From Branchiostoma floridae (Eukaryota > Chordata > Leptocardii > Amphioxiformes > Branchiostomatidae): 64,000 bases of DNA. Positions 5,801-51,800 of this stretch are shown piece by piece (position 1 is the stretch's first letter; every line of letters starts with the position of its first letter). Under the pieces are notes generated by a model. That model was not told the DNA's origin and made no database searches. It was given only the letters and a program-made list of their open reading frames with translations. The stretch is taken from positions 28,325,273 to 28,389,272 of the forward strand of contig NC_049980.1 in assembly GCF_000003815.2 (NCBI RefSeq), read 5' to 3'. A program made the translations under genes and the position numbers.

Positions 5801-8800
5801 TCATGCTGTGTTCAATGTTCAAGTTCTGCCTGTCTTCCACAGGTTCAACCAGGTGGTCCTGCAATCATCCTTTCTCCAGTTGTCCCTGCCTCTACTACAA
5901 AGGGTGCTCAACAGGGATGATCTAATGGCCAACTCAGAAGAGGTTATTGTGGAGGCCGCGTTCAGATGGATCGACTTCAAGCAAGAAGAGCGCTTACAGC
6001 ACCTTCCTGACATTTGCAAGTCCTTACGTCGTACCTTCATCAGCTCAGACAAACTTGTGGAGCTTGAGAGTAAGTGCCAGTCAACAAACAGCGAGTTGGT
6101 TTACAGTGACAGTACAACCCAGCGTGTGGGAATGACACGAACTGAAATGCAGATTGCTGTGCTAAGGGAGGCATCTACGGAATTTCCGCTGTATACCCGT
6201 TGCTTTGACCTTTCAAGAGGCACAAGATACACCATGAACATGCCTGCCAACCTGGAATGTTTCACAATGATAGGGACTGATGAAGGTGAACTGTACTTGG
6301 CCGGGGGTGTTATCATTGAGGCAGGTGGCACATGCACGGCAACTAATAAATGGGGCGAGAGGAAGTTTTTTCAATACAACCACCTTTTAAACACCTGGGA
6401 ACCGAGGTGTGACATGATTGGAAACAGGATCAGGTAAGTGTTTGTCATACAATCTGCTGCTTTCTTCAGCATAGATAGAAAATATCAGAAAAACTTATTT
6501 ATTTTTTTATAGATAGTCTTAAATCAAAAGAGATACGGAGTTACTGTCTTCAAATACATTGTCACTTACCAAACTTCTTTACAGCAAATTATACATTTCA
6601 TCATAGTCGATTTGTATATTGCACTTCTCAGAAGAGCCTTGGCAAATTCAGAAGGGCACAGTAAGCTTGCCTATCTTTGTTGTCATCAGAATGGTTACAG
6701 TACATGTAATTACATGGCTTGAAATAGTTTGCTTACATTTTGTGTACCACCTCTATATTGCAGTGTAGCTGGCAGTCAAAATTACTTGCACCAGTCATTT
6801 TTGTCTTTCGCCGCGCTTCCGCGGCGAAAGGCAATCAGACCGATATTAGATTTCTGTCCGTCTGTCCGTCCGTCCGTCCGTCCGGGTCGACCATGCCATA
6901 CCGTGCTAGCGAGATATTCTACCCTGCAGATTCGACGGTATGTAACGTTATGACATACGTATCGGCCTACCATGAATGTGCTGCTTGGTTTGCGGTCCAT
7001 GCCATATCGTGCTAGCGAGATATTCTACCCTGCAGATTCGACGGTATGTAACGTTATGACATACGTATCGGCCTACCATGAATGTGCTGCTTGGTTTCTG
7101 TATGGCTTATAAGCAGGAATTTGCAGAGACGGATGTGAACGGTGAGGATTTCTTCGTAAGATTGTATACAATTTATAAACTAACATGTTCGCTGTTTGGT
7201 TATAATAAAACAGACCTTGTAGAGAACAGTTTGACATGTCATTTACTTTGTTTTATGGAAAATCACCGCTACAAAATCTAGAATTGTGTAAGATGCGTGC
7301 GCCGCATCTGACATGGTGTGGGAGGGGGGCGTATTCGGAAATTTCTTACTCTAAGAAATTTCAGGCTATTTTCGTGTAACAAACTTCTTTCAGCAAAATA
7401 GTAGCCCTCGGATGCGTTAAAAATAGAATTACCCACATTTAATTTATAATTTCGAAAGGGAAGATTCTGACCGAGCTCGACGGAGTGAGTCTGACGCGTG
7501 ACGTCACGACTCCGTCAAGTAAAAGCATAATTGCGTTACTAAAAGAAACGAAACGTTCCATTAAACATACCACGGACCTGTTTTAGTTTAAAATATCTAC
7601 CTTTCACATGATCTTGCCATTAAAAAAAATATTTCCATTACTGTATATGCCATGTTAATATTTTATGTTCAGTTGTTTATGGTGACAATACTTTGTTTGT
7701 TCTTGCAGAAATTCAGGACACATCTACTGATAGATTTGATTACTACAGTGCACTTTCATAAAACCCTGTTGTACTGTAACAGAGCCGTTCTTAACAGCGA
7801 AACAATCCGAATAAAGTTAACATCATTCATGCAGTTGTGTTATTATACAGTTCTAGTAAAATATACTCTGTGAGAACCACTACCTTACTAAACAGTTATA
7901 TAACCTAGCACTTGACCAAACTGTGCCAGAGCTGCCAACGTTGCAGACTTGGCACCCACGCTTGACCAAACTATGCCAAACAATTTTACCTACACAATAT
8001 AAGTAAGCGAAAGACTAGCTTTTTTCAGAAGCTCTTGTTTCCCTTTAAGTCTTTCAAAGGCATGTCTTGGAAAAATCTACTGTATTTGGAATCTTGTATC
8101 TGCTGTACTAAAGGATGTTTCTCCAAAGGTTTTAAGGCTTTTGGAGCTCCCTTGGCTGTGCACGTAGGATGCAGGATGATAATCAAGATACCTGCACAGC
8201 TCCAATTTTAAGCACTGGCCTACAAAGGCAGTTGGTATTTCGAATCCTGAATTATGTAGAAGACAAAGTGCAAGTCGCCCTTGAACATCAAAATGCAATT
8301 TAGGGTAGTTTACACTCAAAAGACTAAGTATTTCCAGTCCTGAATTATGTAGAAGACAAAGTGCAAGTTGCCCTTGTACATGTACATCAAAATGCAATCA
8401 GGGTAGTTTTCACTCAAAAGACTGAGCATGTTTTCTTAGAAATTCTCCTTCATGTATTTTTCCAGGTGTAGTCTGGTGTGTCTAGATGGGTACATCTATG
8501 CTATTGGGGATGGTCGAACAAATCGAACAGCAGAGAGGTACGACCCTAGTCGTGACCAGTGGATCTGCATACCAACCATCCCCTATCCAATGCCCAGAGC
8601 ACACTCCCGTATGTTCTCCTCTGTATATTGTGCTGTGGCCCTTGATGACAGCATCTACGTCATGGGTAGGGAAGGCTGCTACTGCTTCAGTACCGCAGAC
8701 AACAAGTGGAAGAAGACAGCAGACATGCTCGAAGCCCCTGGGAATCCACAAGCTGTCACGTATCGGGGACGCATCTACTGTGTGGACACGGAATTCCCAG

Positions 8801-22630: not shown

Positions 22631-23875
22631 CATTTTTGTCTTTCGCCGCGCTTCCGCGGCGAAAGGCAATCAGACCGATATTAGATTTCTGTCCGTCTGT
22701 CCGTCCGTCCGTCCGTCCGGGTCGACCATGCCATACCGTGCTAGCGAGATATTCTACCCTGTAGATTCGACGGTATGTAACGTTATGACATACGTATCGG
22801 CCTACCATGAATGTGCTGCTTGGTTTGCGGTCCATGCCATATCGTGCTAGCGAGATATTCTACCCTGCAGATTCGACGGTATGTAACGTTATGACATACG
22901 TATCGGCCTACCATGAATGTGCTGCTTGGTTTCTGTATGGCTTATAAGCAGGAATTTGCAGAGACGGATGTGAACGGTGAGGATTTCTTCGTAAGATTGT
23001 ATACAATTTATAAACTAACATGTTCGCTGTTTGGTTATAATAAAACAGACATTGTAGAGAACAGTTTGACATGTCATTTACTTTGTTTTATGGAAAATCA
23101 CCGCTACAAAATCTAGAATTGTGTAAGATGCGTGCGCCGCATCTGACATGGTGTGGGAGGGGGGCGTATTCGGAAATTTCTTACTCTAAGAAATTTCAGG
23201 CTATTTTCGTGTAACAAACTTCTTTCAGCAAAATAGTAGCCCTCGGATGCGTTGAAAATAGAATTACCCACATTTAATTTATAATTTCGAAAGGGAAGAT
23301 TCTGACCGAGCTCGACGGAGTGAGTCTGACGCGTGACGTCACGACTCCGTCAAGTAAAAGCATAATTGCGTTACTAAAAGAAACGAAACGTTCCATTAAA
23401 CATACCACGGACCTGTTTTAGTTTAAAATATCTACCTTTCACATGATCTTGCCATTAAAAAAAATATTTCCATTACTGTATATGCCATGTTAATATTTTA
23501 TGTTCAGTTGTTTATGGTGACAATACTTTGTTTGTTCTTGCAGAAATTCAGGACACATCTACTGATAAATTTGATTACTACAGTGCACTTTCATAAAACC
23601 CTGTTGTACTGTAACAGAGCCGTTCTTAACAGCGAAACAATCCGAATAAAGTTAACATCATTCATGCAGTTGTGTTATTATACAGTTCAAGTAAAATATA
23701 CTCTGTGAGAACCACTACCTTACTAAACAGTTATATAACCTAGCACTTGACCAAACTGTGCCAGAGCTGCCAACGTTGCAGACTTGGCACCCACGCTTGA
23801 CCAAACTATGCCAAACAATTTTACCTACACAATATAAGTAAGCGAAAGACTAGCTTTTTTCAGAAGCTCTTGTTT
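22631..23875. mobile_element. 1,245-bp interspersed repeat, copy 2
   Basis: The same element as 6796-8040, with the same length to the base. It has the left-end hairpin, TCCG run, 106-bp tandem duplication and TGACGTCA palindrome. Differences seen by eye are single bases only. It lies between KL4 and KL5. Confidence 0.8.
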
Positions 23876-43137: not shown

Positions 43138-44120
43138 CAAAAAAGGCAAAACTACGAAAGCTTCACCCTCCTTTTTCAGCACTCGGTTCCAGTGCTGAAA
43201 ATGGCCTCAACACTGGATTTCCAGTGCTGAATGTTCTTCACTGGGCTTACAGTGCTGACGCGCTCTCAGCACTGGAAAAGCCTGCGTCAGCACTGGAAAC
43301 CGAGTGCTTGGACGATATTCCGCACTGGCCACTGAAATCAATTCCAGAAGGGCTGTAATTATGATTTGCAATCACACACAATCAAGTTGTTTGCAATCCT
43401 TTGTTACTAACATCTATCTTTTATAGTTATAACGTTACATACATCCAGTTCCAACTACACAACAAATGAAATAACTCAGATTCGGGTTTCTAATGAACTT
43501 GGACCATATCTTTCTTAGAATTTACGCCTAGTACCGCTCTCAGTACTTTTCAAAAATGATATCTATCCCATATACAATAATTTATACATATAAAGTCCAG
43601 TTTCAATTACACATCGGCACAACTTCGGTTTCTTAGCATGAAGTTACTTATTTTTTATTCGAATCTTAGACAAGTACCTTTCTCATCACTAGGACACTGC
43701 AATTCTGGAAAGACTTCAGCACTGGTTTGAAGATCGTTCCAGTGCTGAAATAAAAGACGTCAGCACTCGTTTTCCAGTGCTGAAGATCCCTCAGCACTGG
43801 TGTTCCAGTGCTGAATTGTCCCTGAGCACTGGTAAATACAGTGTGGAAGGTGAAGCTTTTGTATATCAGCACTCGGTTCCAGTGCTGACGCCGATTTCAG
43901 CACTGGGTAACTAGTTCCGACGGCAGTCCAGCACAAGATTCGGCACTGGAATTCCAGTCCTGACAGAGCTTCAGGACTGGAACAGAGCCATTCAGCACTG
44001 GAAAACCAGTGCTGAACTTTCTTCAGCACTGGAAAACCAGTGCTGAGGCGGGTTTGACCATTGAATCAGCACTGGAATACCAGTGCGAAAGGTGAAGCTT
44101 TCGTAGACTTGCCTTTTTTG
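43138..44120. mobile_element. Palindrome-array transposon, copy 1 (foldback-like)
   Basis: Ends are inverted: CAAAAAAGGC at 43138 and GCCTTTTTTG ending 44120, followed inward by CTACGAAAGCTTCACC and its reverse complement. Inside are two arrays, about 43174-43335 and 43710-44095, of roughly 17 imperfect palindromes of about 22 bp (CAGCACTGG, four variable bases, CCAGTGCTG), separated by about 9-20 bp of differing sequence. The middle (43350-43700) is plain AT-rich DNA. An internal copy of the end motif (GGTGAAGCTTTTGTA) lies at about 43848. There is no transposase. Flanks GCCATTAAGCA and GCCGCAAGCA could be a decayed target duplication. The frames rich in SALE and HWKTSA are the array read as protein. 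Confidence 0.8.
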
Positions 44121-44223
44121 GTCGCCGCAAGCAGTATGTATAAAGTACATGTATACACGGATGTCACCCTACTAACGAAATGATTTGTACCATATGTGGG
44201 TAATAAGGTTGGCGAAGGTTTAA

Positions 44224-44236
44224 AGGTTAAAGTTGA
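44224..44236 (+). promoter_or_regulatory. Degenerate DR1-like site upstream of KL7
   Basis: AGGTTAAAGTTGA, the weakest of the set, at the equivalent distance (about 73 bp) before the KL7 start codon. Confidence 0.3.
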
Positions 44237-44309
44237 CAGGACAAGAACTGCCACGTGTATCCCAAACGAACCTGTATTCTTCAATCTTGGCTCATTAACG
44301 TTGCTAATC

Positions 44310-47300
44310 ATGAACGAAAGGAACTTTAACCACCCCACTCAGGTTCTTCGTGAACTTAACGCCATGAGGGATCGGGCAGAGTTGACTGACGTGGTTCTGG
44401 AGGTGGAAGGGAGAAGGTAACTGTTGGAACGATGGGAGGGGGAGGGGGCATGTCAAAAATATCATCCCCCACTCTTCTCTAAAAACGACAGTGTGTTAAG
44501 TTGACTGTCCAAACAGACGTTCGGCTCCGGCTGTTTTTGACGTATTATAGGCGTTTTTGCTGGGTTTCTATTTTGCCCCCATAATTGGATCGGTCCCAAA
44601 AGTAACGTTACTTTATTGACACGACAAAAAAGTACAGGGACTTTTGTAGTACAGGGACTTTTGTATGGTCGAATATTAACTACAAGAAAGTGGTTACACA
44701 AATAATGGGGGGGGGGGGGGAGGTCGGATTTTACAATAGGGGAGGTCCTGGTTCGGAATTTTTTTTACAACAGGGAGTGAAGACCAGTGAAGATAGACTG
44801 GATTCGGATTTTTTAAAACGAGGTCAAAAAAAAAGGTGGATCTGAATCTTTTTATGAAATTTTTAGTTGCAGTAGACTGTCTGGAAAACAGTTGAAAAGT
44901 TGTTTAACGTCATCAGGAAAGGTTTTGAAAATTCTTGTGTCCTAGAATCCCATTGCCTAAGAGAACTGAGTTCTGGTGAGTATATGCAATGCAGTATAAT
45001 TGGTTGGGTAATGAGTAATCTTTTTGTACACCTGCAGCTACAGTCTGGTCTCTTGTAACAAAAGTTACCCAAGTAAAAAAATTAAGACTATGGTTCAAGC
45101 TGCAGGTGCCTATACAAAGTCATATAACAAGCTTTACAGCAGAAATGAGAACTAAAGCTATGATGGCTGAATTTGACGGGAGAGCATGTTGTACCCTCTG
45201 CTGGGAGAGTGTGTGAAGTTAACAGCCTGCTTTCATCAGGCCTGTCAAAGTCAAACCTTGAAAAATGTACTGTACTGTATCTTCTTCCTCAGTTTCCCCT
45301 GCCATCGTGCCGTCCTGGCATCGTGCAGTCCCTACTTCCGTGGCATGTTCTCCAGCGGCTATGTGGAGGCCAAACAGGAAAGGATCACTATCAAGGAAGT
45401 GAGCAAGGTAGCCATGGCAACCATTCTGGACTACGCCTACACCGGCTGCCTTCAAACAGAGCCAGACCAGGTCCAGGCTGTGATGTCTGCTGCCAGACTG
45501 CTACAGGTAAGGATGCTGCTTTGAAGTCATGTGTGGTATAGAGCAGCAATCATACTACACGTCAATACTCAAGTCCCACACATGCAATATATATAGCACA
45601 ACAATTTTGGGGTTTGGTAGGTTCTTTGTACATAAGAAGCACTCTACTTGCCCTTTGTTCACTACATAGGAGTAATAAGCTAATCAATGTAGAATACAGA
45701 AGTGAAAGATTTTTGCTGCTTCTAGGTGGAGTTTGTAGGTCGTAACGCCGCACTATACATGAAGTTCCATCTGGACATGTCCAACTGTGCAGATGTGTTG
45801 ATGTATGCCGACATGCTGGGGGACAGTGACTTAGTGAAGGCCAGTGAGGACTTCATTGCATCCAGGTCAGTGAGATGCCTGTTAACTGTTGGAGAGGGGG
45901 AAGAGTATTCGAGTCCCTGTAGACTGATTAAAAGTAAACAATAAACAATAAGGGACTCATGCTAGACGCTGCACATATTATAACTTTATAATAAACTAAG
46001 ATAAACTTGATTGTCAACTTCAAACAACACTATCTTTTTACAAAAATGCATTCACAATGTATGTGTCTTACCACTTTGAATCAACCCAGCCATTGACTTT
46101 TGACATGTGTGTAACTTCCTCAGCTTCCATCAGGTGGTGCTACAACCATCCTTTCTCCAGTTATCACTCCCCCTTCTCCAGTCACTACTCGACAGGGAAG
46201 ACTTGATGACCAGCTCAGAGGACAACATTGTGCAAGCCGCTCTAAGATGGGTTGGTTTCAACCAAGAAGAGCGCTTGCAGCACCTTCCTGCTCTTTGTAG
46301 ATGCTTCCGCCATTCTGCCATCAGCTCAGAACTACTTGCAGAGCTCGAGAGTAAGTGCCCATCAACAGACGACAAGTTGATTTACAGCAAAAGCACAACC
46401 CAGCGGCTGGGACAGGTGCAAACTGAAATGCAGATTTTCTTCAGAGAAGGGTTCTCTAAATATCAGTCCCAGCAGGTTGCTCCTTGCTATGACCCATCCG
46501 AAGGTGGGTTGTATGAACTCCATATGCCTGACAACCTGGCCAACTTCTCTGTGACAGCCACTCCCAATGATGAGCTGTACCTGGCAGGGGGCATCAACAG
46601 CCTATCAGACAGAAGGCAGAAGGCACTTTACCAGTACAACCACCTGTTAAACACCTGGGAACCAAAGTGTGATATGGGATCACCTAGAGTGAGGTATGTA
46701 TCTCGCTTGCAAGCTGCTGCTTTCTTGCTATAAGGCATTTAGGAAATCAAGAATGCCATCCTCTAAGTTCTTTGGAGAATTGTAAGTAACCTTATCTTGT
46801 ACTTGTATTTGTTTTTCCAGGTGTGGTCTGGTGTATCTGAAGGGCTACATCTATGCCATTGGTGGTGATGACACCAAGAAAACAGCGGAGAGGTATGACC
46901 CAAGTTGTGATGAGTGGACCCCCATACCAGCCATGCCTCAGTCCATGTCCTCAGAACTCTGTGCAGTGACTCTTGATGACAGCGTCTATGTCATAAGTAA
47001 GGAAGGCTGCTACTGCTTCAGTACCACAGAGAACAGGTGGAGCAAGATGGCGGACATGCACAAACCACAAACGTGTCCTCAGGCCGTCACGTATCAAGGC
47101 AGAATCTACAGTGTAGACTGCAACAAAGAAAAAGACTGGACTTGGGTAGAGATGTACAACCCTGCAAACTGTGTTTGGGAGCGGTCCGGTCACCGTACCT
47201 TCAACAAAGTAAACCTGCTGAAGCATGAAGAGACTATTTACCTCCTCTCTGTAATCAAAAACAATGACTTCTGGGGCCAAAATGGTGAGAGTGCATTCAA

Positions 47301-47583
47301 GATTTGCATTTACCAGTACCAGCCAGAGTCTGGCTTTTGGGTGGGTCTAAAAGACAAGGGCAGGCTGGTTCCTCCTATAGCAGACTGGATGGGCTCTAGA
47401 AGAGGAACAGTGATAGCTTGCCTGTCAGCAAGGATGGTCCCATTGTTTCTGGGGGAGCAGATTCACGACCAGGAGCTTTTATCTGACGATGAAGATACAT
47501 CTGGAAGTGGAATCTCAGACCAAGAGGACAGCGATGAGGATAGCAGTGCCAGGGAGAGTGGAAGTGACTATTATGACATCTGA
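44310..47583 (+). CDS. KL7: Kelch-like BTB-BACK-Kelch protein, 597 aa
   Basis: Join of 44310-44416, 45293-45506, 45726-45865, 46124-46693 and 46821-47583 (1,794 bp, one frame). The start is MNERNFNHPTQVLRELNAM. BTB is at about residues 15-120 (the exon 2 sequence has FRGMFSSGYVEAKQE). The linker FHLDMSNCADV differs from the usual DHLDVSN. BACK is at about 125-235 (FHQVVLQPSFLQLSLPLLQ). Kelch blades run from about 250 to 560 (LKGYIYAIGGDDT, RYDPSCDEWTPIPAM, TTENRWSKMADM). The acidic Ser/Asp tail is short, about 35 residues (SDQEDSDEDSSARESGSD). Intron 4 is only 127 bp. It sits directly after palindrome element 1, whose right end is about 190 bp from the start codon. By sequence it groups with KL8 and KL9 (CYDPS, LYLAGGI, NTWEP) more than with KL4-KL6. 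Confidence 0.9.
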
Positions 47584-48865
47584 GACACTGGGATACCATC
47601 AAAGATAAAACTGCTTGAATCACCAATGACAAGGTCATAAAACAGAGCAGAAGTGAAGACACATCAACATGCCATGCTCTGATCACATTCCCAAAGTTAC
47701 ATGTACCAAAATACTAGGTAGATGGGAAATGTGTTGACACAGAGGATAGACATTTTGATTGACGTACATTGAAAACTTGAAAAATCTGATCTAACCGATG
47801 CCTTGTATTTTAGATTGTACATGACCAAAACCATTAGCCGCTTTAGCTTGTGCTGTAGGCATCAGGTATACATGAAGCTGCATTAACATGCACATGATGC
47901 CAACTTTGATGATGCTATATAACATTTACTTAACAGTTTGCAAAAATGTTGTTTTTACTAATTTGTTAATTAACAAAAGGTTACCAAGTATTGTTAGGAA
48001 AAAGGTTACCATGTATTTTTAGGAATATTAACATTGGAAACAGACATCTCATTTAGATAGGACAGCAATGGATTTGTGAAAACAGCAGTTTTGATGATTT
48101 ATATCATGTAAGTATGTGCTTATCTGTCTTAAGTATGGCTTATCTTATGACCTAGATCATTTGAACTGTGAAGAAGGCAGTGAAATGTGTTGATTATTGG
48201 GCTTTGTAGTAATACCCATTGTCTTTTAGGCTTGTAGTACATAGAGAGGATTTGCAATCTGTTCAAAAGTTTAGTATGTAACGTTAGTTAACACATTTAT
48301 TTGTACTTGAGTTCATGTACTGCACAGTTATTTCCACACAAAGACATTAAAGGCTTATAATGCCAAATGCACTATTTTATTTTAATGATTTTAGTTGCTG
48401 TTGTTTCATGATTTACGTACATACATGTTCACTTTAAAATCAGAATATAGCAGTGCTAACCTATGCTACTGTCTATACATGTGTTTAAAAGCTGCCTTAA
48501 ACTTGTTTGTGTTAAGATTCTATTTCATTTACATGCACATGCATCTGGATCGACCCCAAGAGAGATGCTTAGTTGGGTCAAATTGTGAAACCACTTCTTT
48601 TCAAGTTTCAATTATCTCCCTCCGTACACACTCATCCATTGGATCAAATTACAAACAACTGTGTTTGATAAAATGTTCTTTAGTATTGTTTTTGTATGCA
48701 GCCATATTTAAAAAGTCATTCCTCTTTTCCAACATACACACTATGGGAGTATCAGGTATCAAGATAGGTCAAAGGTCAGAGTTTAAGTGCGTATGACCTC
48801 TTGGTGCACTAAGCCAGCAGTGCGATAGTTTCCAGCGTACATTTGGCACCCCGGCAGCTGTAAAG
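47584..48865. other. KL7-KL8 intergenic region
   Basis: Non-coding. ATTAAA near 48345 could be a polyadenylation signal for KL7. The segment near 47850-47930 is homologous to KL8 3' flank after the 397-bp MITE. No RNA gene is seen. Confidence 0.5.
48766..48778 (+). promoter_or_regulatory. Perfect DR1 site upstream of KL8
   Basis: AGGTCAAAGGTCA, an exact DR1, about 88 bp before the KL8 start codon and within a block also shared upstream of KL9 (GTATCAAGAT). Confidence 0.6.
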
Positions 48866-51800
48866 ATGTACGCAACAAATATAGATCACTGTAATAATGT
48901 TCTGCACAAGCTGAACGAACTGAGGGAGCGGGCAGAGCTGACTGACGTGGTCCTGGAGGTGGAGGGGAAAAGGTAAGTTCGGCGATGGGGGAGGGGGGCA
49001 AAGCTGGCTGAAAGCTACTAGTATATGTGTGACCACATCTAGCGAAAGAGTATACGTTAAACAAGGACAGCATCAACAAGAACAAACTTGAGACCATTAC
49101 TATCATGTTATATCGCATAAATTATTCTATTCCACTCTATGCTATATGCATTGCTGTACTGGTGTTGTCCCTTCGTACCCTTGTTCCAATCCAGAAATAA
49201 TTTGCTCCAGTGCTACCCTAGTTCCGATCCAAAATGCTCAAACCCTCTCTAGTTATCAACCAAAATGCTCAAACCCGCAAATATACAAAAGTAACGGTCT
49301 CCTCTGTCAGCACTGGAGCACCAGTGCTGGAGTGGTCGTCAGCACTGGAAGTCCAGTGCTGAGCCAGCGTCAGCACTGGAAATCCAGTGCTGAGGCAGCT
49401 TCAGCACTGCAAGCCCTCCTGTCAGCACTGGAAACCGAGTGCTGAGACTACAATCAGCACTGGTGTTCCAGTGCTGATGACGTTTCAGCTCTGGAAATCC
49501 AGTGCTGACAAATATTCCGCACTGGAAACCGCGTACTGAAGCCGCCGACTCTAAAGTAGCGACACGACTCAATGCGGCATGAGCTGCGGTCACAATTTTT
49601 TTATTTATTTTTATAATGAAATTATTAAACCTGTCTAAAAGTAAAATGTCTTCAATCACGTTACTAACTTCTCAAAACAACTGTGGTTTACCACCTAACG
49701 CAGCTCGAGTCGTAAAAATGGTCCATTACTCAGAATGTGTCGTCCACCTGTAACTAGCTATTCTTTGTAAAAAAAAAAAGCGATCTCTTTACCACACAGA
49801 TAGAGCACCTCTGACTACCTATTGTTTTTTAAATGATGCTACTTTGCCGCACAAGTAAAATGTGTCGTCCACCTGTAACTACCTATTCTTTGTAAAAAAA
49901 CAAGCAATCTCTTTAAAACACAGATAGAGCACCTATGAGTTGTCTACCTCTGACTACCTATTGTTTTTTAAATGACGCTACTTTGCCGCGCACAAGCAGA
50001 ATGTGTCGTCCACCAGAACTACCTATTCTTTGTAAAAAAACAAGCGATCTCTTTACCACATAGAGCACCTATGAGTTGTCTACCTCTGACTACCTATTGT
50101 TTTTTAAATGATGCTACTTTGCCGCACAAGCAGAATGTGTCGTCCACCTGTAACTACCTAGTATCCTTACACGCACAGATATATCTAAGTCTAAAGGAAA
50201 TAACTCGGACAGCCGTTCGGACACATGCAACACAAATATTATGTTCAGCACTGGAACGCTCCAGTGCTTTTTTAACGTCAGCACTGGAAGCCCAGAGCTG
50301 AAGTTTTTTTAGCACTGGTCTTCCAGTGCTGAAAAGTTCCCGAGCACTGGTAACTCCAGTGCGGAACCCGTTACTTTTGTATATCAGCACTCGGTTCCAG
50401 TGCTGACGGCGGTTTCAGCACTGGGTAACCAGTGCTGAATGACCTTTTAACTGGCTCGCCGCCTCTCCGCCATGAGTTCAGCACTGGTACCCGAGTGCTG
50501 ACGGCAGTTCAGCACTGGAAAACCAGTGCTCGGAAAAGTTCAGCACTGGAAATCCAGTGCTCGCATTGGGTTCAGCACTGGAATTCCAGTGCTGAGGGAG
50601 CTTCAGCACAGGAACAAGGCCGTTCAGCACTGGAAAACCAGTGCTGACGTTTCTTCAGCACTGGAAAACCAGTGCTGAGGCCGATTCAACCCATTGGTTC
50701 AGCACTGGAACACCAGTGCGGAACCCGTTACTTTTGTATACTTGCGTGCCTCAAACCCTCCATAGTACCCAGATGTTTTGACCCTACCCTCCAATCCAGG
50801 CTCTTCCAGCACCTCCCCCCCCCCCCACCCCCCTGCCGTTATTTTCTGGAACAGGGCAACAGTATTGCTTTGACAAGCGGCCTTTATCAGTTTATGAAAC
50901 ACAATTGACATTGGGTTATCTTCCTCTTCAGTTTTCCCTGCCATCGTGCCGTCCTGGCCTCCTGCAGTCCCTACTTCCGTGGCATGTTCACCAGTGGCTA
51001 TGCGGAGTCAAAACAGGAAAGGGTCAGCATCCAGGATGTGAGTGAGGTAGCCATGGCAACCATTCTGGACTACGCCTACACCGGCCGCCTTCAGACGGAG
51101 CCAGACCAGGTCCAGGCTATGATGTCTGCAGCCAGACTGCTACAGGTAACATCATCATCATCATCATTCATCCTCAAAGGTGGAGCAGACGAAGTTAGCC
51201 CTCCAGAACTGCTTGTCTTTCATCACAGAGAGTAGCCCTTGCCCTTCCAGCCCTGTTTCATCCTCAATGAGTTTCTTAAAAGTTGTGCTTGGGACTTGTG
51301 CCTGGTAACTATCTGTTACAATACAAGTCCTCAGGCATGTAGGGCCAAGACAAATTCATTATGGAGATGTCTTTTGAAGGCCCATTTTCATTACTTCAGT
51401 CAGGGATCACGAGACAATATTTGGGTACTCGCTTTAGAAGCACTGTACATCTTTGGTCCTTCCATAGGCCATTAGGTGTAATAAATTGTATGAAAGGATA
51501 CTTTTCGGAAGTCTTCATACATGTGCAGCTACAAAAACTTGATCATACTATTCATAGTGATGCCTTTGGCAACTAAGCAGTCAGTCTGTCCTTTTCCCAT
51601 ATATGCACATTTTGGAAGTGTAATAAGTCCAGTATGTACACTTCCGAAAAGTATCCTACAATTTATTACACCCAATGACCTATAGTATGGAAGGACCAAA
51701 GATGTACGAGATACCCTACCCTTTTGCTCCCTTTATAGGTGTAATAAGCTGGTGCAGAATGGTCTATAATCATGTTTGTTGCTTCCAGGTCGATTTTGTT

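What the first reader, a model, noticed from the sequence alone, without database searches (positions are those of the whole stretch)
43138..50749. Two transposons built from arrays of short imperfect palindromes
Seen: two elements (43138-44120 and 49277-50749) each contain about 17-20 copies of a 22-bp imperfect palindrome, CAGCACTGG-N4-CCAGTGCTG, with differing 9-20 bp spacers, enclosed by terminal inverted repeats. The central bases vary while the arms are kept, and many changes in one arm are not matched in the other. The order of units and spacers in the right arrays is colinear between copies (for instance CAGCACTCGGTTCCAGTGCTG, then a unit with CACTGGGTAAC). I do not recognise this as a named family. 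The palindromes may be transposase-binding or replication structures, or transcripts may fold into hairpin chains; both are inference.
Basis: partly seen in the sequence, partly recalled or inferred. Interest (0 to 1): 0.78.

Follow-up and report, generated by a model that had tools for sequence, protein, structure and literature searches.

The report
Amphioxus jumping DNA with palindrome arrays
Two stretches of an amphioxus genome are copies of a jumping-gene family whose ends are built from many short mirror-image sites, most likely landing pads for a DNA-binding protein; the family resembles known Mutator-type elements but its own transposase was not found.

Summary
Both elements (E1 43146-44112, E2 49277-50745) belong to one dispersed family in this amphioxus genome. 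Its palindrome occurs 838 times exactly, the reversed control 0 times; one array unit marks 88 places on contigs C1-C19 and four others. The copies are transposons: of 14 copies with both ends located, 8 have perfect abutting 9-bp target duplications and 2 more have perfect 9-10-bp ones after 4 extra bases; 4, E1 among them, have none. This size, the composite inverted ends and the unrelated middles fit non-autonomous Mutator-like (Foldback-type) elements. No transposase was found, and none of 27 MULE-domain hits lies within 20 kb of a listed copy. Palindrome arms are kept between subfamilies more than spacers; one-arm changes (179) are never compensated; unit spacing is mostly near whole helical turns. 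This favours arrays of dimeric protein-binding sites over selected hairpins. An 8-bp box by the ends switches version together at both ends and in an internal third end copy. New variant of a known kind.

The parts
43146..44112 (+). Element E1 (967 bp), subfamily B, non-autonomous transposon; no target duplication seen
43146..43167 (+). E1 left terminal inverted repeat with subfamily-B box
43176..43336 (+). E1 left palindrome array (6 segments, one a half unit)
43345..43715 (+). E1 middle, unrelated to the middle of E2; no Pfam match in six frames at E 0.1
43716..43846 (+). E1 right array A
43849..43865 (+). E1 internal third copy of the end sequence, box GGTGAAGC as at the right end
43866..44088 (+). 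E1 right array B
44091..44112 (-). E1 right terminal inverted repeat
49268..49276 (+). E2 left target duplication CTCAAACCC, inside a 31-bp minisatellite
49277..50745 (+). Element E2 (1469 bp), subfamily A, non-autonomous transposon
49277..49297 (+). E2 left terminal inverted repeat with subfamily-A box
49307..49539 (+). E2 left palindrome array (8 segments, one a half unit)
49540..50244 (+). E2 middle, with a 136-bp tandem repeat at 49807-50160; no Pfam match above a curated cut-off in six frames
50245..50364 (+). E2 right array A
50367..50383 (+). E2 internal third copy of the end sequence, box CCCGTTAC as at the right end
50384..50721 (+). E2 right array B
50724..50745 (-). E2 right terminal inverted repeat
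50750..50758 (+). E2 right target duplication CTCAAACCC, after 4 extra bases GTGC

Best explanation
A family of non-autonomous cut-and-paste DNA transposons of Mutator/Foldback type in amphioxus. A transposase supplied in trans cuts at GCAA...TTGC ends and makes 9-bp target duplications (duplications shown; enzyme inferred). End recognition is inferred to have two layers: the terminal 14-15 bp with an 8-bp subfamily-specific box, and subterminal arrays of 24-bp palindromes spaced mostly in whole helical turns. Each palindrome would bind a protein dimer (the transposase itself or an accessory protein), mostly on one face of the DNA, so that a cooperative complex brings the two ends together. 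The right arm carries a second, internal array-plus-end unit that arose by duplication of the right end.
For: Many dispersed copies: 838 exact palindromes and 88 copies of one array unit. Target duplications: 8 of 14 two-ended copies perfect 9 bp at the ends, 2 of 14 perfect 9-10 bp after 4 extra bases; the control, run on the nine copies only, gave 0 of 72 mismatched flank pairs; all 5 held-out copies whose left end was recovered (of 8 tried) show it. Between subfamily A (5 copies) and B/C (4 copies) arms are 4150/4485 (92.5%) identical, spacers 1584/2175 (72.8%), centres 624/880 (70.9%). 181 units: 179 one-sided changes, 2 double, 0 compensated. Spacings cluster at 21, 31-32, 41-44, 52, 63, 73-74. 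Box: same version at internal and right end in 9 of 9 copies and in 17 of 17 with both readable, of 20 fetched. Right arrays A and B of E2 are 115/133 identical. Precedents: Muta1 (active, 8-9-bp duplications, subterminal repeats), Tm1, and a FLYWCH-MULE copy in this genome with repeat-array ends and a 9-bp duplication.
Against: No transposase-bearing copy was found. None of 27 PF10551 hits lies within 20 kb of the 88 unit sites or the 15 listed C1 places; the nearest is 20,225 bp away, but most of the 838 palindromes were never listed. Four of 14 copies, E1 among them, show no perfect duplication. Spacing and arm conservation are shared by descent, so unit counts are not independent, and the alignment anchors on the arms. 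The phase result weakens when each distance value is counted once (R 0.51 for 18 centre values, 0.57 for 21 half-site values), and the 58 distances outside the main class fit 9.8 bp slightly better than 10.5 (R 0.77 against 0.74). Nothing here shows protein binding.
Confidence: 0.65

Rival explanations
1. The palindromes act as hairpins or cruciforms, in RNA (hairpin chain, small-RNA source) or single-stranded DNA, and are kept for pairing.
For: The 4 units folded form DNA hairpins, z -3.6 to -7.7. Any such array would pair if transcribed.
Against: 0 compensated changes among 1629 arm pairs, against 6.2 expected from re-paired arms, and 179 one-sided changes (the filter of at most 4 changes per unit lowers double changes somewhat). 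Near-helical spacing is not needed for hairpins. No Rfam match at gathering scores.
Confidence: 0.12
2. The arrays are neutral tandem repeats carried along by the ends, kept alike by slippage and gene conversion.
For: Tandem Repeats Finder sees 31-bp repeats in both elements. One copy (L010) has a clean extra 31-bp unit. In E1 the internal and right-end boxes are identical, as conversion would make them.
Against: Units are in the same order in both subfamilies with irregular half units kept in place, and arms are better conserved than the spacers inside the same repeat. In 11 of the 12 subfamily-B copies where both were read, the internal and terminal boxes keep the same one-base difference, so conversion is not generally erasing differences.
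Confidence: 0.12
3. The family moves by a superfamily other than Mutator (for example P, Merlin or a new one) that happens to give 9-bp duplications.
For: No MULE gene found is linked to a listed copy. Long composite ends have also evolved with P-type transposases (Galileo, cited in PMC3169594).
Against: Exactly 9 bp in all 8 directly abutting duplications; 8-11 bp is given for MULEs and 9 bp for Tm1 and Rehavkus.
Confidence: 0.2

Closest known systems
Tm1 Mutator/Foldback family of root-knot nematodes (PMC3169594; abstract, results part 1 of 3, TIR section and discussion part 1 of 2 read)
   Same: Composite inverted ends with many copies of a short motif; 9-bp duplications; mostly non-autonomous, MITE-like copies.
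   Different: Tm1 motif C is a 14-bp direct repeat, not a palindrome; Tm1 has 7-bp asymmetric motifs outside the TIR and a known FLYWCH-MULE transposase. Here the ends abut the duplication in 8 copies and no transposase is known.
Muta1 of Aedes aegypti (PMC5225508; passages and discussion section read)
   Same: Mutator-like element with long TIR made of subterminal repeats, 8-9-bp duplications, over 300 non-autonomous derivatives, most with variable internal sequence; the authors suggest that it cuts outside the TIR, compare the 4 extra right-end bases in E2 and L008.
   Different: 9 direct copies of a 12-bp repeat with 3-4-bp spacers and one 10-bp terminal palindrome; active transposase known; a palindrome array or internal third end is not mentioned in what I read.
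FLYWCH-MULE element at about C9:6718850-6722830 in the same genome (L032, L055, L056)
   Same: Ends built from repeated short motifs, 9-bp duplication GTGTGTAGC read by eye.
   Different: Different motif (ACTCGGACCA, 14-25-bp spacing), different end sequence, 7-bp asymmetric end motifs; no palindrome unit of the present family in the pieces held.
En/Spm (CACTA) with TnpA-binding subterminal motifs (recalled, no call)
   Same: Subterminal arrays of short binding motifs, some tail to tail, used to assemble the ends.
   Different: CACTA termini and 2-3-bp duplications (recalled); not met here.

Membership tests
Mutator superfamily (MULE) | 8-11-bp target duplication | tested here: met
   9 bp abutting in 8 of 14, 9-10 bp after 4 extra bases in 2 of 14, none in 4 of 14
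Mutator superfamily (MULE) | long inverted ends in many members | tested here: met
   E2 left end and array against reversed right end 198/244 identical
Mutator superfamily (MULE) | MULE-type DDE transposase in the autonomous copy | tested here: inconclusive
   None in nine ORFs from pieces around C1 copies nor in six-frame scans of the E1 and E2 middles; other copies not scanned; 27 PF10551 hits, none within 20 kb of listed copies
Foldback-type (composite TIR) elements | inverted ends built of internal repeats | tested here: met
Tm1 | 7-bp asymmetric motifs between TIR and duplication, 14-bp motif C | tested here: not met
   Ends abut the duplication in 8 copies; motif is a 24-bp palindrome
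Muta1 | 12-bp direct subterminal repeats | tested here: not met
hAT | 8-bp target duplication (recalled) | tested here: not met
   9 bp in all 8 directly abutting cases
En/Spm (CACTA) | CACTA-like termini and 2-3-bp duplication (recalled) | tested here: not met
   Termini GCAA...TTGC, 9 bp
Rehavkus | PHD-finger transposase with minisatellite before the 3' end | not tested
   No coding copy found; PHD-finger transposases were not searched for

The most novel reading that the evidence does not exclude
End recognition works with two keys. A palindrome array shared by all subfamilies is read by one dimeric protein (host or element-encoded) that assembles a one-faced filament over up to 20 sites, while an 8-bp address box repeated at both ends and at an internal third end is read by a subfamily-specific domain and has switched sequence at all three places at once. 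The internal end would be a second, usable synapsis site.
Probability: 0.28. Interest if true: 0.68.

Novelty: new variant of a known kind. Interest (0 to 1): 0.5.

Why it matters
It adds to amphioxus a dispersed Mutator/Foldback-type family with an end design not seen in the papers looked at: palindromes set mostly at whole helical turns and a box that switches together at three places. If the box follows the transposase, the subfamilies are a natural record of how a transposase and its ends change partners. The FLYWCH-MULE copy with a 9-bp duplication in this genome also bears on a published statement that MULE transposases could not be detected for Branchiostoma floridae (PMC6446971, passages read).

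Tried and rejected
Rfam scan of the window at gathering scores: 0 matches. Exact search for the extended palindrome in viral contigs: 0. MULE loci as partner: no palindrome array in the pieces held around the 27 hits (about 1.5 kb on each side, some with N stretches, one cut short); one weak unit in L049 was read and judged chance. Six further flank pieces around 4 of the 27 gave no array: one read N throughout, and one (L059) held a single weak unit that I did not read further. The long copy at C1:4216143-4221219 holds a reverse-transcriptase fragment (RVT_1) and apparently a second insert of about 1 kb in its right end (my reading). E1's outer inverted CAAAAAAG was considered as part of the ends and dropped: the like-looking flank of L071 proved to be its own 9-bp duplication. 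Simple descent of the spacing is not excluded: the P values (0.003, and 0 of 20,000) use classes chosen after seeing the data, and 52 may be 21+31; I do not rely on them. Rows dropped: one search kept units with at most 3 changes per arm, at most 4 in all and a 3-5-base centre; one search kept distances up to 130; one search skipped columns before the first unit and used 9 of the 10 aligned copies (L009 left out), 3 of 20 copies lacked a readable right end, 3 of 8 lacked a left end in the 401-base piece fetched. Paper listings seen: 20 of 103, 14 of 14 (13), 13 of 13 (14), 20 of 72 (20), 4 of 4 (61), 7 of 7 (62), 10 of 332 (86), 0 (126), 8 of 234 (127).
Full report
What is there. The window (C2:28325273-28389272 of a 513-Mb assembly) is amphioxus DNA. 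A kelch-repeat exon between the elements (46786-47583) has its nine best matches, all that bear an organism name, in Branchiostoma, and the contig length given for a B. floridae protein (35136500) equals that of C2 here, so the host is very likely B. floridae. Read by eye, E1 lies just upstream of one kelch/BTB gene copy and E2 in the first intron of the next; no gene annotation was available.

The two elements. Each has short inverted ends, an inward array of palindromes at each end and an unrelated middle; six-frame scans of both middles gave no Pfam match above a curated cut-off. The right arm is longer because it holds array A, an internal copy of the end sequence, array B and then the real end. 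A and B are related (E2 115/133 identical), so the right end was probably duplicated at some time. Left and reversed right ends of E2 are also related (198/244), so the arrays are part of long composite inverted repeats.

A family of transposons. The exact palindrome occurs 838 times in the genome, the reversed control 0 times. I fetched 14 places on C1 and extended some. Copies share ends and arrays, while middles differ or are shared only in part. Nine copies had both ends located: three are flanked by perfect 9-bp direct repeats, two (E2 and L008) by perfect 9- and 10-bp repeats after four extra bases at the right end, and four show none (E1, L014, L017 and the copy at C1:4216143, which has only a 6-bp match); 0 of 72 mismatched flank pairs match. 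E2 sits in a 31-bp minisatellite, so its duplication alone would be weak evidence. As a test on new data I took one array unit, found 88 exact sites, fetched right ends for 20 of them and left-end pieces for 8 of those. Five left ends were in reach and all five copies have perfect 9-bp duplications directly at the ends. In all, 10 of 14 two-ended copies have a perfect duplication, 8 of them exactly 9 bp and abutting.

What kind. Nine bases, long composite ends and heterogeneous middles are the profile of Mutator-like, Foldback-type elements (PMC3169594; PMC5225508; PMC6446971, passages). The genome holds MULE genes: 27 PF10551 hits, some of them ZSWIM-like and two of the ten proteins scanned (L032, L042) with FLYWCH and MULE domains. 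One of these, at about C9:6718850-6722830, has about 350-bp inverted ends with 6-7 copies of a 10-bp motif, and, read by eye, 7-bp asymmetric end motifs and a 9-bp duplication; the far end of its second copy was not found in the piece held, so that copy's duplication is untested. So array-built Mutator ends do exist in this genome. But none of the 27 lies within 20 kb of a listed palindrome copy, and no transposase was seen in the nine ORFs scanned from pieces around C1 copies or in the E1 and E2 middles. Filing under Mutator therefore rests on duplications and architecture only; the defining enzyme was not seen.

How the palindromes probably work. (1) Between subfamily A and the B/C copies, arms are 92.5% identical, spacers 72.8% and centres 70.9%. 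(2) Among 181 units, 179 arm pairs are changed on one side, 2 on both, none in a compensating way, against about 6 expected from re-paired arms. Pairing is therefore not what is kept; each half-site is. (3) The unit extends to TCAGCACTGG-N4-CCAGTGCTGA. Most centre distances fall at 31-32, 41-44, 52 and 63, and half-site distances also at 21, 73-74 and 84: near whole turns of about 10.5 bp (R = 0.87 for all 153 centre distances, 0.74 for the 58 outside the main class). Against this, counting each distance value once gives only R = 0.51-0.57, the 58 fit 9.8 bp a little better, and a few distances (28, 34, 57, 59-60) are off. Distances are inherited and some are sums of others, so this is suggestive only. 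Together these fit dimers bound mostly on one face of the DNA. That step is inference.

The box. Between the last palindrome and the terminal 14 bases lies an 8-bp box in three versions: CCCGTTAC (A), GGTGAAGC (B) and GGCGAGGT (C). Within a copy the right end and the internal copy carry the same version, allowing one base of difference (9 of 9 copies in the first set where both are visible; 17 of 17 in the held-out set, 6 A, 9 B, 2 C), and so does the left end, again within one base, in the 5 held-out copies where it was reached. Between A and the rest the box is only 25-31% identical while the classes around it are 71-98%. The bases next to the internal box (TTTTGTATA) do not follow the subfamily: they are the same in 20 of 20 held-out copies, whereas the right ends differ. 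In B the internal box differs from the terminal one by the same base in 11 of 12 copies read (9 of 9 held-out, L008 and L013), but not in E1, so gene conversion is not generally equalising them, though it may have done so in E1. Either all three boxes were replaced together early in each subfamily or they track a changing DNA-binding domain; the second is the more interesting reading.

Limits. Repbase and Dfam were not available. Statements that the family was not met in print rest on the listings only, several of them capped.

Noticed in passing
L055+L032+L056 (about C9:6718850-6722830): FLYWCH-MULE transposon in amphioxus with repeat-array ends, 7-bp asymmetric end motifs and 9-bp duplication GTGTGTAGC; a second copy, 97% identical over 2987 columns, exists on C19 (L033/L061). 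A published survey (PMC6446971, passages) reported being unable to detect MULE transposases for B. floridae.
   Followed up: partly
L006/L020/L021 (C1:4216143-4221219): Family copy broken by a reverse-transcriptase (LINE-like) fragment in its middle and apparently by a roughly 1-kb insert in the right end box.
   Followed up: partly
window 50746-50749 and L008 right end: Four extra bases between the right end and an otherwise perfect duplication in two copies, as if the right end were sometimes cut 4 bp outside.
   Followed up: no
window 43138-43145 and 44113-44120: E1 is flanked by an 8-bp inverted CAAAAAAG/CTTTTTTG and has no target duplication; probably chance or a rearranged end.
   Followed up: partly
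window 6891-7097 and 22726-22932: Two places hold the same 106-bp tandem repeat, each about 2 copies with the same consensus, suggesting a segmental duplication in the window.
   Followed up: no
window 49807-50160: 136-bp tandem repeat, 2.6 copies, in the middle of E2.
   Followed up: no
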